From Thiomargarita sp. (GTDB lineage: Bacteria > Pseudomonadota > Gammaproteobacteria > Beggiatoales > Beggiatoaceae): a stretch of DNA of 50,975 bases. The position numbers were made by a program, and so were the translations under genes. This document shows positions 38,415 to 50,975 of the stretch, one piece after another. Each line of letters starts with the position of its first letter. Positions within the stretch are counted from its first letter, which is position 1. Below the pieces are notes generated by a model, which saw only the letters and a list, made by a program, of their open reading frames with translations, did not search any database and was not told where the DNA came from. Where the stretch lies: assembly GCA_020718845.1 (NCBI GenBank), contig DYRG01000019.1, positions 1 through 50,975 of the forward strand. Direction: 5' to 3'.

Positions 38415-40142
38415 TTAATTTTGATGAACGATGCCGTTAATTTTCAAATGCAACACTTCTAAACTTTCTAAGCCTTCATTATCGACAACTTTGATTGCGA
38501 TTTGATAACTTCCTATTTTAAAAGAATAAGTTTGTTTGCCAATTTTATCGATTAAAATGTCGGCTTTGAAACCTTTTTGTTGATCAAAATTGAAATCCCA
38601 CGCATAAAATTCAATACCCGCTTCAGATTCACCTGTTGCAATAAATTCGATATCTCGAAGTTCTTTTGAATTTAAACCCAAATCATTAAAGGAAACGCTT
38701 AATTTAGGTTTTTTCGCAATTAGAACAATTTCATCAACTTTCTTTAATTCAATGATAAGATCATCGTGATTTTTCAAACGAGCAACTTCTTCAATTGCAC
38801 CGCGTCCAAAAGTGAACGCAATTAAAACCCCAATCGGTTTCTTTTCGATCTGATTTTTCTCAAATAATTTACTATCAAAACGTTCACAAGCGGATTTGAA
38901 ATTATCAATCACATTTCTTCCGATATTATCCGAGCGTTTCACTTGAATGGGAATGCCTTCTTTGGTTTTTCCATCAATCCCTAAATCGTTGCGTTGTTTG
39001 GTATTTGAAATGCCGCCAAATTGTTGAATAATCCAGCTTTCAAATTCAAACGCATTTGAACTGCGCAAAGTATCATAATCGTATTTATGTAATTGAATTG
39101 CAAAGGGTTTTGATAATAAATCTTGCTGTTTTTGTAGTCTTAGTTCCGACACTTTAATTGCCTGTACAGATTGATCAATTCCAATCCAATTTCTTTTCAA
39201 TTTATCGGCGACTGCAACGGTTGTTCCTCCGCCGACAAATGGGTCTAAAATTACGTTGTTTTCATTTGATGCGCACAAAATAATTCTTTCTAATAATGCT
39301 TCGGGCTTTTGTGTCGGATAACCTATGCGTTCTTTTGAAGATTGAACATTTTGTATATCTTCCCAAACATTACCTAAAATTTCTCCTTTTTGTTCTTCTA
39401 AATAACGTTTTAAAGATAATCTTTTTGAATAATCAGGGCTGCCATCTTTTCTTTTAGGAAATAATACTCTTCCTTCAATATCTAATTTTTCCATCGTTTC
39501 AGGAGAATATCTCCAACCATTTTCAGGTGGTTGATAACCTTTATAAATATACCAACCATTAGGTTTTCCTGTTTCTTTATTTATTGCGGACATACCACCA
39601 CCTAAAGGTGCAGACATATCAGCTAATCTATATTTTCCTCTACCATCATTATCATCATATTTATAAAAAGTGGATTTGTATTTTTCTGAATGTTTTCCAT
39701 AAATAGGATTATAGGTAAATTTATTAGATTTTGAATAATACCAAATAGTATCAGTTAAAACGGCTAATTTATTTTTAGCATCATTATGTGCATTATGTCG
39801 TTTCCAAATGATTTCGCCTTTGAGATTATTTTCTCCAAAAATTTTGTCTAAAATCAACACCCTAATATAAGCATTAGCGTGCCAATCACAATGAAGAAAA
39901 ATCGATCCAGTTGATTTCAAAATTCGATGCATTTGCTCAACCCGTTCTTTAAGCCATGCAATATAATGATCAATGCCGCCCGACCAACGATCTTCAAAAC
40001 TGCGAATTTCGCCTTTATCGCCCCAAATCACCTCATAATTTCGATTTGAAAAAAACGGCGGATCAAGATAAATCAAATCAACACTTTCACTGTCGATTTG
40101 TTTCAAAATCTCTAAATTATCACCTAAAATCAACTTGTTCAT
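38415..40142 (-). CDS. DNA methyltransferase fused to an Mrr-like nuclease and a PKD-like domain
   Basis: A 575-residue fusion. Residues 1-345 are a beta-class amino-methyltransferase: DPPF (27-30, motif IV) precedes DPFVGGGTT (300-308, motif I, AdoMet binding), with QKPEALLERII before it. Residues about 363-475 resemble the Mrr catalytic domain of the PD-(D/E)XK fold. There FESWIIQQFGG is followed by D390, then nine residues, then Q400-V-K402, the D-x9-QxK signature. About 497-570 has a PKD-like pattern (FYAWDFN, then IGSYQIAIKVVDNEG). One chain could both modify and cut DNA. I use the ATG at 40142 with AGAGG upstream. Confidence 0.85.
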   Translation of the reverse strand: MNKLILGDNLEILKQIDSESVDLIYLDPPFFSNRNYEVIWGDKGEIRSFEDRWSGGIDHYIAWLKERVEQMHRILKSTGSIFLHCDWHANAYIRVLILDKIFGENNLKGEIIWKRHNAHNDAKNKLAVLTDTIWYYSKSNKFTYNPIYGKHSEKYKSTFYKYDDNDGRGKYRLADMSAPLGGGMSAINKETGKPNGWYIYKGYQPPENGWRYSPETMEKLDIEGRVLFPKRKDGSPDYSKRLSLKRYLEEQKGEILGNVWEDIQNVQSSKERIGYPTQKPEALLERIILCASNENNVILDPFVGGGTTVAVADKLKRNWIGIDQSVQAIKVSELRLQKQQDLLSKPFAIQLHKYDYDTLRSSNAFEFESWIIQQFGGISNTKQRNDLGIDGKTKEGIPIQVKRSDNIGRNVIDNFKSACERFDSKLFEKNQIEKKPIGVLIAFTFGRGAIEEVARLKNHDDLIIELKKVDEIVLIAKKPKLSVSFNDLGLNSKELRDIEFIATGESEAGIEFYAWDFNFDQQKGFKADILIDKIGKQTYSFKIGSYQIAIKVVDNEGLESLEVLHLKINGIVHQN

Positions 40143-40351
40143 TTTTTCCTCTATTTTGTTATACAGAAATATTATATCGAATACAATTCTTAATACAGAT
40201 TTAATCACAGATAAATCAAATAATTACCTGTATTGCTTTTTATTCCCACGTTGAATTGCGGTCTAATACACCCCGTCAGAAAGCAAAGCAATGCTGCTTA
40301 AAATATCGTTAACTGTTAATTGCATGATTTTATCTTCTTTTAAAATTTAAG

Positions 40352-40914: not shown

Positions 40915-41934
40915 TCATAGCCTAAAAATTTCATATTCTCCAAGTATATTAGTTTTAATCAACCCTTTTCTTTCAATATCTAATAAACACTCATCAATTT
41001 TAAATCTTTCTGCTATTTTTTCTTTACGTGTAGACCAAGAGTTTAACTCATACATTAAGTTATCGTATGTTGGATTTTTTAGTTTTTTTATCAAAAAAAT
41101 AATTGAAGTAAAAAGCTCTAAATATTCATCTGAATTTATTTCATTAACTATGATTGATGCTTTATCAATTAGCATTTTAAATTTTTCTAAGTTTTTATTA
41201 AAGTCATTACTAATTAGCGTTTTTTGTGCTAAAACAAGTGAGTCAGAGGTTGATAAATTATGATAGTTTTGAAACTCTTTGATATTGGTACTTAACACGT
41301 CTATAGAGTGCGAATAAGGACCATACTTATAAGCATCAAAGACAAAATAGTCGTTACCATTTAAAATATTGATTAAATAAGCAGTTTTCTGAAGCCTAAG
41401 CTTTGAAAACTTTGCTAATCTTTTTTTAATTTCCATAAGTACGCAATGCGATAAACTCAATCTTGGGGCTACTTTAGGTTTACTGATGTAATATCTTGAT
41501 GGTTCATAAAGATACATATCCAAATTTTTAATTGTTTCAAGTTTTGAAACAATTAAACCTTTTACTTTACCCCACTCCAGTCCACCATTACCACACCCTA
41601 AAGGAGGAATAGCTATAGAGATGATATTATATTCGGTAATTTTTTCTACTAATTTATCTAATCCTGCTTCAATATATTTATATTCTGACTTTTTTCTCCA
41701 CTCATCCTTAGTTGGAAAATTAACAACGATTTTGTTTCTTTCTTCATGAATTAGGATATTTCCAGGTCTAAATTCTTTTCTAGCACAAGCCAATTTATAA
41801 ATTTTATAGTTTTCTGGATATTCTAATTTAAATTGATAAGCGATACCCTTCCCCATGTAACCTTCGCAGTTCACGGTATTAACTAAGGCTTGCGCCTTTG
41901 TTTGCAACATATCACCAGTAATATATTCAATCAT
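40915..41934 (-). CDS. darG: DarG: macrodomain antitoxin of DarTG
   Basis: A 339-residue antitoxin. The N-terminal macrodomain (about 1-150) shows ALVNTVNCEGYMGKGIA (16-32) and PPLGCGNGGLEW, both diagnostic. In known systems it removes ADP-ribose from DNA. The C-terminal half (about 170-339) is a separate helical region corresponding to the DarT-binding part of DarG. I start at the ATG at 41934, overlapping the darT stop by eight bases; a TTG at 41946 is less likely. The order darT then darG is the standard operon. Confidence 0.9.
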   Translation of the reverse strand: MIEYITGDMLQTKAQALVNTVNCEGYMGKGIAYQFKLEYPENYKIYKLACARKEFRPGNILIHEERNKIVVNFPTKDEWRKKSEYKYIEAGLDKLVEKITEYNIISIAIPPLGCGNGGLEWGKVKGLIVSKLETIKNLDMYLYEPSRYYISKPKVAPRLSLSHCVLMEIKKRLAKFSKLRLQKTAYLINILNGNDYFVFDAYKYGPYSHSIDVLSTNIKEFQNYHNLSTSDSLVLAQKTLISNDFNKNLEKFKMLIDKASIIVNEINSDEYLELFTSIIFLIKKLKNPTYDNLMYELNSWSTRKEKIAERFKIDECLLDIERKGLIKTNILGEYEIFRL

Positions 41935-42514
41935 TTGATTTAACAAACATTTGTGGTTTATTATCTATAAAAAACTTTAGGTTATATTTGGTTTTAAATT
42001 CTTTTATAAGATTTTCTGATTCAGAACAGCACACTGCAATTGATTGAAAGTTTATAGCTTGGATTGTGGTTGGTGATAAACATTCTGCCATGCAGGTATT
42101 TTTACAGTTTGTGTCAGAGTAATCTCTTTGATTCATTAATTCCCAATCAATTTTATTGAATCCTTCGTCATAATCCAAAATCTCTACTTGATTACCAGAA
42201 AGAGGATGATATGGAATAATTTTCCATTTCTGATTTTTTGCAACATCACGATGTACAGCAATTAAGATGAATTTTTTATTGGGATGATTTTTTTGAACTC
42301 TACCATCAAATGGGTTTTTTGCAAAAAAGTGAAAAGGCACATAATTTTCTAATGACTGTGACTTTCTCGATTCTAAAATCTCACTGTCCGCAACATCAAC
42401 AAACTCAGATAAGCTCAAAGAGCTTCTTGATTTAAGCCCATCACGAATAATGCTTTCAATATTTTCCATTGATGTTAAATGATATAACAACTTTTGTGTT
42501 CTAATATCTGTCAT
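41927..42514 (-). CDS. darT: DarT: DNA ADP-ribosyltransferase toxin
   Basis: A 195-residue toxin of the DarT family. The NAD-binding segment is LYHLTSMENIESIIRDGL (H12). VPFHFFAKNPF (59-69) and the C-terminal MAECLSPTTI (142-151, with likely catalytic E144) match the family blocks; R50 may be the conserved Arg. Characterised DarT enzymes attach ADP-ribose to thymidine or guanosine of single-stranded DNA and act in phage defence. The frame is intact. Subtype is not deducible by eye. Confidence 0.9.
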   Translation of the reverse strand: MTDIRTQKLLYHLTSMENIESIIRDGLKSRSSLSLSEFVDVADSEILESRKSQSLENYVPFHFFAKNPFDGRVQKNHPNKKFILIAVHRDVAKNQKWKIIPYHPLSGNQVEILDYDEGFNKIDWELMNQRDYSDTNCKNTCMAECLSPTTIQAINFQSIAVCCSESENLIKEFKTKYNLKFFIDNKPQMFVKSND

Positions 42515-49193: not shown

Positions 49194-49778
49194 TTAGACT
49201 TTTTTTGGTGTAAGAAATTCCCAATCGATAAATAAATCAGAAAACAAAGAAACTTGCACAGGTTGTTCCAAAGGATAAATGATAGGTTGATTATATTTTT
49301 TTTGGAAATCAAGCAAATAAACCATTAAATGGCATTTTTCTGGATTAATAATCCAATATTCTTTAACACCATGTTGTTCATAAAGTTTTCTTTTAACTTC
49401 CATATCCATTAATTTTGAGGAAGGAGAGATTACTTCAATTATCCAATCTGGTGCACCTCGACACCCTTTATCATCTAATTTTTGCTCATCACAAATAATT
49501 GAAAGATCAGGTTGAATAACGGTGTCAATTTGCTCATCTTTTTCATTTCTTTTTGGCAAACGTACATCAAATGGTGCGACATAAAATTCACAAGGTTTTT
49601 TTTGAAAATAGTTTCTTAATTGACCCGCTAAATCAGAAACAAATTTTTGATGAAGCCGCGACGGTGCAAACATTGCGTAGGCTTCACCGTCAATTAATTC
49701 CCAACGCTCATCTTCTGACCAGTTGCAATAATCAGCATAAGTGTATTTGGTTACTAATTTTAAAGCAGCGTTCATCAT
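49194..49778 (-). CDS. Uma2-family PD-(D/E)XK nuclease-fold protein
   Basis: A 194-residue DUF820/Uma2 protein. The PD-(D/E)XK core is visible: D91 in QPDLSII, E115 in PDWIIEVISPSS and a Lys in the following helix (about K129), then EYWIINPEKCHLMVY. These proteins are abundant in cyanobacteria and filamentous sulfur bacteria; most lack an assigned role. It overlaps nothing and precedes aat by four bases. Confidence 0.87.
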   Translation of the reverse strand: MMNAALKLVTKYTYADYCNWSEDERWELIDGEAYAMFAPSRLHQKFVSDLAGQLRNYFQKKPCEFYVAPFDVRLPKRNEKDEQIDTVIQPDLSIICDEQKLDDKGCRGAPDWIIEVISPSSKLMDMEVKRKLYEQHGVKEYWIINPEKCHLMVYLLDFQKKYNQPIIYPLEQPVQVSLFSDLFIDWEFLTPKKV

Positions 49779-49953
49779 TTTTTCCTATTTTATTCTAAAG
49801 TTAAAATATTTGGCATATATTATCCGAAGACCACAAAATTGGATAAATTTAAAGCATTGAATGTTATCATTTTTTTAAAAATTCTTTTCAATGAACATAT
49901 TATATTTTAATACAAAATATCATTTTGGAGTATTATAAATTTTTTATTTGGTA
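49779..49953. other. Intergenic spacer, no gene seen
   Basis: AT-rich spacer between the divergent Uma2 gene and the aberrant tRNA. No supported reading frame, RNA or repeat was found before the tRNA promoter. Confidence 0.5.
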
Positions 49954-49983
49954 TAGACAATAAGTTAAAATTACTTTTATAAT
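49954..49983 (+). promoter_or_regulatory. Sigma-70 promoter of the aberrant tRNA
   Basis: TAGACA (one mismatch to TTGACA) and a perfect TATAAT are 18 bases apart. The tRNA 5' end lies 12 bases after the -10. The promoter could also read on into the FRG gene. Confidence 0.75.
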
Positions 49984-49995
49984 GTGAATACGCTT

Positions 49996-50072
49996 GGAAC
50001 TGTAGCTTAGTGGTAGAGCATTCTCTTGGACTAGGGAAAGGTCGGAGGTTCGAATCCTCGCCAGTTCCACCA
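49996..50072 (+). tRNA. Aberrant tRNA with eight-base anticodon loop (identity uncertain)
   Basis: A 77-base tRNA-like gene with encoded CCA. The acceptor stem is perfect (GGAACTG/CAGTTCC), the D arm is normal with GG in the loop, and the T loop is TTCGAAT. The anticodon stem TTCTC pairs with GGGAA only if the loop is the eight bases TTGGACTA. Read from U33 the anticodon is GGA; deleting one G gives GAC. The base after the triplet is a pyrimidine in both readings, which is unusual. The T stem GGAGG pairs fully with CCTC(G)C only if one G is skipped. Two single-base insertions thus separate it from a standard tRNA. Confidence 0.6.
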
Positions 50073-50092
50073 ATTTTAATTTTGGAAAAAAT

Positions 50093-50821
50093 ATGAATAA
50101 TTGGCATAGTTTCTTGGATGAGATTAATAAAAAAAGAGTAGAATTAAAATGTTCATCCTCTGGTGCTTGGTATCGAGGACTTTCAAATTCTAATTATTCT
50201 CTTCTTCCTTCATTGTTTTGCCACCCTCGTAAACCTAATGCAGAAGAAAATCTTTACAAAGCATATATTAGAACTAGAATGGCATCTCATAATCTTAATT
50301 CTTGGTTTAATCTTATTGATATGCAACATTTTGGTACTCCTACTAGACTATTGGATTGGACAGAATGTTTTGGTGTTGCTTTATATTTTGCAATAAATAA
50401 TTATGATCCAATTAATCAAGCACTACCATGTATATGGATACTAAACCCTTTTTCATTATCATGCAGAGCTAAAGGAAATAATAATAAAGAAATAGGAGAT
50501 TTTCATCTTTATGAAGAAACTGATTATTATAGGTGTTTTATTAAAAAAGATAAAAGTTGGAAATATTCTTATCCTATGCCATTTTATGCTCCAGCTCCAA
50601 ATGAAAGAATTAGATCACAACAAGGCTTTTTTACTGTGCATGGTTTAGATGAAAGACCATTGGAAATGACTTGTTTAAAGCATATAGTTAAGGTTGAAAT
50701 TCCTATAGATGTTCACCCTGAAGCAAAACGTTTTTTAGATTTAGCGGGAATTTCAAAAGAAACTATGTTTCCTGATACAGAGGGATGGTTACATAAAATT
50801 CAAAAAGATTATTTTTATTAA
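50093..50821 (+). CDS. FRG-domain protein
   Basis: A 242-residue FRG-domain protein. The signature blocks are WYRGL (26-30), DMQHFGTPTRLLDWTE (76-91) and RIRSQQGFFTVHG. No signal peptide or membrane segment is visible. The biochemical role of FRG domains is not established as far as I know; they occur widely in accessory regions. The gene starts 20 bases after the tRNA CCA and is distinctly AT-rich, consistent with acquisition at the tRNA. GGA lies upstream of the ATG; it may share the tRNA promoter. Confidence 0.8.
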   Translation: MNNWHSFLDEINKKRVELKCSSSGAWYRGLSNSNYSLLPSLFCHPRKPNAEENLYKAYIRTRMASHNLNSWFNLIDMQHFGTPTRLLDWTECFGVALYFAINNYDPINQALPCIWILNPFSLSCRAKGNNNKEIGDFHLYEETDYYRCFIKKDKSWKYSYPMPFYAPAPNERIRSQQGFFTVHGLDERPLEMTCLKHIVKVEIPIDVHPEAKRFLDLAGISKETMFPDTEGWLHKIQKDYFY

Positions 50822-50830
50822 GTGCTAAAA

Positions 50831-50869
50831 TAGCATTAAATACAGTGTAAATCGTATTTAATGCTATAT
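50831..50869. terminator. Bidirectional terminator between FRG gene and trxB
   Basis: TAGCATTAAATAC and GTATTTAATGCTA form a perfect 13-base stem with a ten-base loop. A T-rich run follows on the plus strand and TTTTAG on the minus strand, so it can serve both convergent genes. Confidence 0.85.
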
Positions 50870-50871
50870 TT

Positions 50872-50975
<104 letters not shown>

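What the first reader, a model, noticed from the sequence alone, without database searches (positions are those of the whole stretch)
49954..50821. Strongly promoted aberrant tRNA with an eight-base anticodon loop, directly upstream of an FRG gene
The sequence has a near-perfect promoter, intact acceptor stem, D arm, T loop and CCA, so it is probably transcribed. Yet the anticodon loop is eight bases and the T stem carries one extra G. Eight-base anticodon loops are known from +1 frameshift-suppressor tRNAs. The FRG gene begins 20 bases later and may be co-transcribed. Possible readings: a frameshifting or decoy tRNA linked to a defence-like gene, a tRNA resistant to anticodon nucleases, or a decayed tRNA used as an integration site. 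Which is right cannot be told here.
Basis: partly seen in the sequence, partly recalled or inferred. Interest (0 to 1): 0.75.

Follow-up and report, generated by a model that had tools for sequence, protein, structure and literature searches.

The report
Odd tRNA leading a defence-like gene
One bacterial genome carries a nearly complete but abnormal transfer-RNA gene directly in front of a candidate anti-phage gene; the abnormality is real in the sequence, but no relative examined shares it, so it is more likely a damaged or repurposed tRNA than a new kind of system.

Summary
ARAGORN and Rfam call a tRNA at 49996-50072 with an eight-base anticodon loop (TTGGACTA), a G bulged from the T stem, all 21 stem pairs and encoded CCA. 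An 11/12 promoter match ends 12 bases before it. The terminator scan lists nothing between it and FRG, 20 bases on; a stable A+T-rich hairpin, which that scan also did not list, follows FRG. So tRNA and FRG probably share one transcription unit, as tRNA-Thr/EF-Tu and tRNA-Trp/SecE appear to do in this genome. A conserved pair is not supported: the eight-base geometry occurs in 1 of 398 sampled phylum genomes, this one, and none of 33 other FRG genes examined has a tRNA within 300 bases upstream. FRG matches a candidate single-gene defence family (PADLOC PDC-S15); its model resembles ADP-ribosyltransferases only at modest scores. U37 and the bulge weaken, but do not exclude, a +1 frameshift tRNA. 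Best reading: a non-canonical, probably poorly decoding tRNA that lends promoter and leader to a mobile FRG gene.

The parts
49954..49983 (+). sigma-70-like promoter TAGACA-18-TATAAT; the -10 box ends 12 bases before the tRNA
   Evidence: distances of 11-16 bases also precede many other tRNA genes of this genome
49996..50072 (+). non-canonical tRNA gene, 77 bases, CCA encoded
   Evidence: ARAGORN; Rfam RF00005 53.8 bits; 21/21 stem pairs
50026..50033 (+). eight-base anticodon loop TTGGACTA (one base more than normal; U33 kept, pyrimidine 3' of GGAC)
50060..50060 (+). extra G bulged from the 3' strand of the T stem
   Evidence: Infernal insert; pair list
50084..50086 (+). weak Shine-Dalgarno-like GGA, 6 bases before the FRG start codon
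   Evidence: read
50093..50821 (+). FRG-domain gene, 242 aa; candidate phage-defence singleton (PDC-S15); model resembles ADP-ribosyltransferases at modest scores
   Evidence: Pfam PF08867 7.3e-17; PADLOC PDC-S15 1.3e-34
50827..50870 (.). A+T-rich inverted repeat with a T-rich tail, likely terminator after FRG
   Evidence: 50822-50878 folds at -16.2 kcal/mol, z -5.5, 0 of 200 shuffles as stable; not listed by the terminator scan, which uses its own stem, loop and T-tail rules

Best explanation
This is a single, structurally well kept but non-canonical tRNA gene that is probably transcribed from its own tRNA-type promoter together with the FRG gene behind it. Most likely the tRNA no longer decodes, or decodes poorly. 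Its remaining role would be to provide the promoter and a processed 5' leader for FRG: cleavage at the tRNA ends would free a short-leader FRG mRNA, as in ordinary tRNA-mRNA operons. FRG is a mobile candidate anti-phage gene, probably a NAD-using ADP-ribosyltransferase-type enzyme, that came to lie behind this tRNA. Shown: gene structures, promoter match, no listed terminator between them, a stable hairpin after FRG, absence of the tRNA from the other genomes searched. Inferred: transcription, processing, loss of decoding, horizontal origin, enzyme activity.
For: Promoter match and position like those of other tRNAs in this genome; 7 of 37 upstream regions reach 11 or more, this one included. 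No terminator-like site listed between tRNA and FRG; stable hairpin after FRG. The same genome has tRNA-Thr 44 bases before an EF-Tu-like gene and tRNA-Trp 26 bases before a SecE-like gene (gene names recalled from the protein letters). An insertion in the loop and one in the T stem, plus a pyrimidine at 37, are each expected to harm decoding (recalled). No same-loop tRNA in the other genomes of the 398-genome phylum sample and the 42-genome family set or, with a stricter pattern, in genome contigs. FRG is patchy: 34 of 369 sampled class genomes, this one included; its best-scoring relative is 31% identical over residues 23-229; relatives lie on 72 plasmid records, 59 of them predicted conjugative, and in 3 phage records.
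Against: All 21 stem pairs and 14 positions that I recall as conserved are intact; with 4 random substitutions only 8% of copies keep the pairs and 1.7% keep both. So either the changes are recent or the fold is under selection, and lost decoding is not proven; how many substitutions to expect is not known. Frameshift tRNAs tolerate some change at 37: a G37C variant of SufB2 still made dipeptide (32%, passage). Co-transcription is not measured; the terminator scan that found nothing between the genes also missed the hairpin after FRG. The isolated RNA does not fold better than shuffles, and with the FRG leader the predicted minimum is not a cloverleaf.
Confidence: 0.43

Rival explanations
1. 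Recently damaged tRNA pseudogene, with FRG beside it by chance and no role for the tRNA in FRG expression.
For: Two insertions and U37; no other genome searched carries it; FRG genes examined elsewhere are not directly behind tRNAs.
Against: No broken stem pair and a kept promoter. The 20-base gap without a listed terminator makes transcription into FRG likely.
Confidence: 0.22
2. Attachment-site relic: a mobile element that carried FRG integrated at this tRNA and left a rebuilt, imperfect tRNA.
For: The two aberrant places lie in or near the regions where islands cross over in tRNA genes, the anticodon loop and the T/acceptor junction (Islander passage). Two other FRG genes lie 312 and 427 bases behind an intact tRNA-Asn.
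Against: No second copy of the tRNA 3' part within 3 mismatches in the assembly. No phage-integrase (PF00589) match on this contig; two elsewhere. Both strands of the anticodon and acceptor stems match each other, unlike a chimera.
Confidence: 0.17
3. A natural +1 frameshift tRNA that reads a four-base codon (GGAC pairing with GUCC).
For: Expanded loop with U33 kept; all well-characterised +1 frameshifting tRNAs have an extra loop base (PMC7803779 passage). E. coli tRNAs of all 20 classes could be turned into quadruplet tRNAs (PMC9094753, abstract start), and its authors supposed that changes at 32, 37 and 38 help (passage), so U37 need not be decay. tRNA body intact.
Against: Pyrimidine at 37 and a bulged T stem. 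The FRG frame is open without a shift. No same-geometry tRNA in the other genomes searched.
Confidence: 0.1
4. Sequencing or assembly error added both G.
For: The genome is a 123-contig draft. One extra base is next to another G.
Against: The T-stem G lies between two C, not in a run. Leaving one loop base out of account still leaves a pyrimidine at 37.
Confidence: 0.05
5. The tRNA is an RNA partner (antitoxin, sensor or substrate) of the FRG enzyme.
For: Tight linkage in one likely unit. The FRG model's matches include tRNA-acting Tpt1/KptA enzymes, most at Z 5.0-5.7.
Against: None of 33 other FRG genes examined has a tRNA within 300 bases upstream. Toxins of the same fold score equally, so Tpt1 likeness is not specific.
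Confidence: 0.03

Closest known systems
+1 frameshift suppressor tRNAs (SufB2, SufD type)
   Same: one extra base in the anticodon loop, U33 kept
   Different: purine at 37 and a normal T stem in those (recalled; G37 of SufB2 seen); here U37 and a bulged T stem; no evidence of charging or frameshifting
tRNA-mRNA operons (tRNA-Thr/tufB, tRNA-Trp/secE)
   Same: tRNA with promoter, short gap, protein gene
   Different: here the protein is a candidate defence gene and the tRNA is abnormal
FRG domain / PADLOC PDC-S15 candidate defence genes
   Same: full-length family match
   Different: the other members examined are not directly behind a tRNA
ordinary tRNA-Thr(GGT), the best match in the phylum sample
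   Same: D arm, loop start TTGG, 3' end; 79-81% identity over 71 bases
   Different: seven-base loop TTGGTAA and a normal T stem
Genomic islands at tRNA genes (Islander)
   Same: candidate cargo gene right behind a tRNA
   Different: no displaced tRNA fragment in the assembly and no integrase match on this contig

Membership tests
canonical elongator tRNA | cloverleaf with intact stems and conserved tertiary bases | tested here: met
   21/21 pairs; 14 positions recalled as conserved are present; Rfam 53.8 bits
canonical elongator tRNA | seven-base anticodon loop, purine at 37, five-pair T stem without bulge | tested here: not met
   eight-base loop, pyrimidine at 37, bulged G at 50060
+1 frameshift suppressor tRNA | extra base in the anticodon loop | tested here: met
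+1 frameshift suppressor tRNA | charged and shifts frame on the ribosome | not testable with these tools
   needs tRNA sequencing and a reporter
genomic island at a tRNA gene | displaced fragment of the target tRNA at the far end | tested here: not met
   only one copy of the 24-base 3' part within 3 mismatches in the 123-contig assembly; shorter fragments and unassembled parts not covered
genomic island at a tRNA gene | integrase gene nearby | tested here: inconclusive
   PF00589 matches two places in the genome, both partial and none on this contig; it showed no full-length match where XerC/XerD would be expected (recalled), so it may miss some; the contig ends 903 bases after the tRNA
FRG domain (PF08867) / PDC-S15 | profile match over the curated cut-off | tested here: met
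   62.5 bits against 25; PDC-S15 1.3e-34 over residues 2-241, no cut-off given for that library
ADP-ribosyltransferase superfamily | ART fold | tested here: inconclusive
   VIA-align best Z 5.7, below the 7 to 8 that the tool calls typical of models without a clear Foldseek match; the 50 rows shown are ART-type enzymes by title or recall; Foldseek best E 0.13; assignment in print in PMC9503650 (passages)
tRNA-mRNA operon | one transcript for tRNA and protein gene | not testable with these tools
   sequence signs only: promoter, no listed terminator between, hairpin after

The most novel reading that the evidence does not exclude
The tRNA and FRG are a functional pair: an abnormal tRNA kept in shape by selection acts as antitoxin, sensor or substrate of a tRNA-acting ADP-ribosyltransferase-type defence enzyme, or reads a four-base codon in a natural genome.
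Probability: 0.1. Interest if true: 0.8.

Novelty: new variant of a known kind. Interest (0 to 1): 0.3.

Why it matters
If the tRNA is functional it would be a rare wild-genome case of an expanded anticodon loop, known mainly from selected suppressors and engineering, or a tRNA used as promoter and leader of a defence gene. If it is a relic, it shows how a defence gene can take over a strong housekeeping promoter.

Tried and rejected
Conserved tRNA-FRG system: not supported. One search found 42 FRG places, 41 besides this one; 7 had no locus and 1 gave no ORF, leaving 33, of which none has a tRNA within 300 bases upstream and 2 have a tRNA-Asn at 312 and 427 bases (one locus had only 384 upstream bases). 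ARAGORN over the whole of 50 FRG loci, several of them overlapping, found tRNAs only here and at the two tRNA-Asn places. Rfam scans of 34 FRG loci gave those tRNA-Asn, a cobalamin riboswitch (L230) and TwoAYGGAY RNA at both FRG loci of one genome (L205, L075).

Phage or plasmid origin of the tRNA: the best plasmid match (77.4% over 84 bases) is an ordinary tRNA-Ile in a tRNA array. The 20 phage records listed, of 127, match at 72.7-77.6%, and 15 of the 20 are annotated as tRNAs; shorter matches of higher identity in unlisted records were not examined. So no origin could be named. The viral contigs pattern scan listed 80 stretches (its cap); no ARAGORN tRNA in them has this loop, and one contig (L159) holds two other odd-loop tRNAs.

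Ancestral site: in 29 relatives' aat loci (40 of 42 genomes matched, this one included; loci were given for 30; 1.5 kb flanks where the contig allows) FRG, Uma2 and a 32-residue trxB end were not found, and 2 of the 29 hold a tRNA, both ordinary, so no empty site could be read.

Close FRG homologues in genome contigs and viral contigs: none by those scans. NCBIfam gave no match for FRG; PHROGs gave one family of unknown function.

Papers: searches for natural eight-base loops listed mainly engineering work by title. I claim no absence from print beyond those searches and 30, 64, 65, 66.

Full report
What is there. The window is the whole contig C49 of a 2.98 Mb, 123-contig genome. ARAGORN calls a tRNA of unknown type at 49996-50072 with a four-base anticodon ggac, and Rfam's tRNA model gives 53.8 bits. 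Infernal's alignment shows one more base than the model in the anticodon loop and one inserted G on the 3' side of the T stem. Read this way the parts are: acceptor GGAACTG/CAGTTCC, D stem GCTT/GAGC, anticodon stem TTCTC/GGGAA with loop TTGGACTA, variable loop AGGTC, T stem GGAGG/CCTC-(G)-C, discriminator A and CCA; all 21 pairs are standard. The loop keeps U33, but the base after GGAC is U, where tRNAs normally have a purine (recalled).

How unusual. A pattern for this tRNA sub-class with a seven-base loop matches 37 of 42 family genomes, whereas the eight-base version matches 1 of 42, this one. The relaxed eight-base pattern matches 1 of 398 sampled phylum genomes, this one; the seven-base control was run in the family only. 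The patterns cover only tRNAs with this D arm and variable loop. Among 120 distinct tRNAs in the loci held, a biased sample, three had odd loops: this one and two in one viral contig. In the phylum sample the only other matches at E 1e-9 or better are ordinary tRNA-Thr(GGT), in 3 genomes, 79-81%.

Expression. The promoter TAGACA-18-TATAAT ends 12 bases before the tRNA. Seven of 37 upstream regions of tRNAs in this genome reach 11 or more matches, this one included. The A+T-rich region holds 15 promoter-like sites against 7.0 in shuffles, but no other reaches 11. No terminator-like site was listed anywhere in 49780-50975; nevertheless a hairpin of -16.2 kcal/mol with a T-rich tail follows FRG, while between tRNA and FRG only a four-pair hairpin followed by A, not T, is predicted. 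In the same genome tRNA-Thr lies 44 bases before an EF-Tu-like gene and tRNA-Trp 26 bases before a SecE-like gene, so a tRNA-mRNA unit would be ordinary here.

The FRG gene. Pfam FRG 7.3e-17; PADLOC PDC-S15, a candidate single-gene defence family, 1.3e-34. The neighbouring Uma2 gene matches PADLOC PDC-S03. An AlphaFold2 model from 15 sequences (mean pLDDT 78.9, residues 127-157 poor) gives modest matches to ADP-ribosyltransferase-type structures: VIA-align best Z 5.7 (3.7 A over 91 residues, Tpt1), with bacterial ADP-ribosylating toxins tied within 1 Z; the tool warns that Z under 8 may mean only a common arrangement. No Foldseek match reaches E 0.001; the best is 0.13. Passages of PMC9503650 place Frg in the ART superfamily as a possible NADase effector. 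The family is patchy, 34 of 369 class genomes including this one, and relatives occur on 72 plasmid and 3 phage records.

Linkage. Of 33 other FRG genes examined (41 found; 7 without a locus, 1 without an ORF), none has a tRNA within 300 bases upstream; two have an intact tRNA-Asn at 312 and 427 bases. This fits cargo near tRNA hot spots and argues against a conserved tRNA-FRG pair.

Function. The intact pairs matter: with random substitutions, 8% of copies with 4 changes keep all pairs and 1.7% also keep 14 conserved positions. So either the aberrations are recent or the fold is still selected. A leader or processing role would keep the fold without decoding and is my preferred reading (0.43); a recent pseudogene is next (0.22); then an attachment-site relic (0.17), for which the displaced fragment is missing and no integrase match lies on this contig. 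A frameshift tRNA (0.10) is weakened by U37 and the bulge. In its favour, PMC9094753 found that E. coli tRNAs of all 20 classes can become quadruplet tRNAs and supposed that changes at 32, 37 and 38 help (abstract start; passages), and a G37C variant of SufB2 kept partial activity (PMC7803779 passage). The authors of PMC9094753 expected natural quadruplet tRNAs to be rare.

Verdict.

Noticed in passing
40915-42514: A DarT-like gene and a macro-domain gene side by side, a likely DarTG toxin-antitoxin pair (Pfam).
   Followed up: partly
38415-40208: N6/N4 DNA methylase gene near the DarTG pair, a possible small defence cluster.
   Followed up: no
49194-49778: Uma2 gene overlapping the listed aat frame; matches PADLOC candidate PDC-S03.
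   Followed up: partly
L159 10981-11053: Viral contig with many tRNAs, one of them with a four-base anticodon catt by ARAGORN.
   Followed up: no
L085 831-2918: Two tandem FRG genes behind an intact tRNA-Asn.
   Followed up: partly
L011 (own genome contig C17, 27779-28223): A partial phage-integrase match lies about 100 bases from the tRNA-Asn gene near a contig end, a possible island at tRNA-Asn in this genome.
   Followed up: no
L205 2630-2782 and L075 769-838: TwoAYGGAY RNA matches near both FRG loci of one other genome, G291.
   Followed up: no
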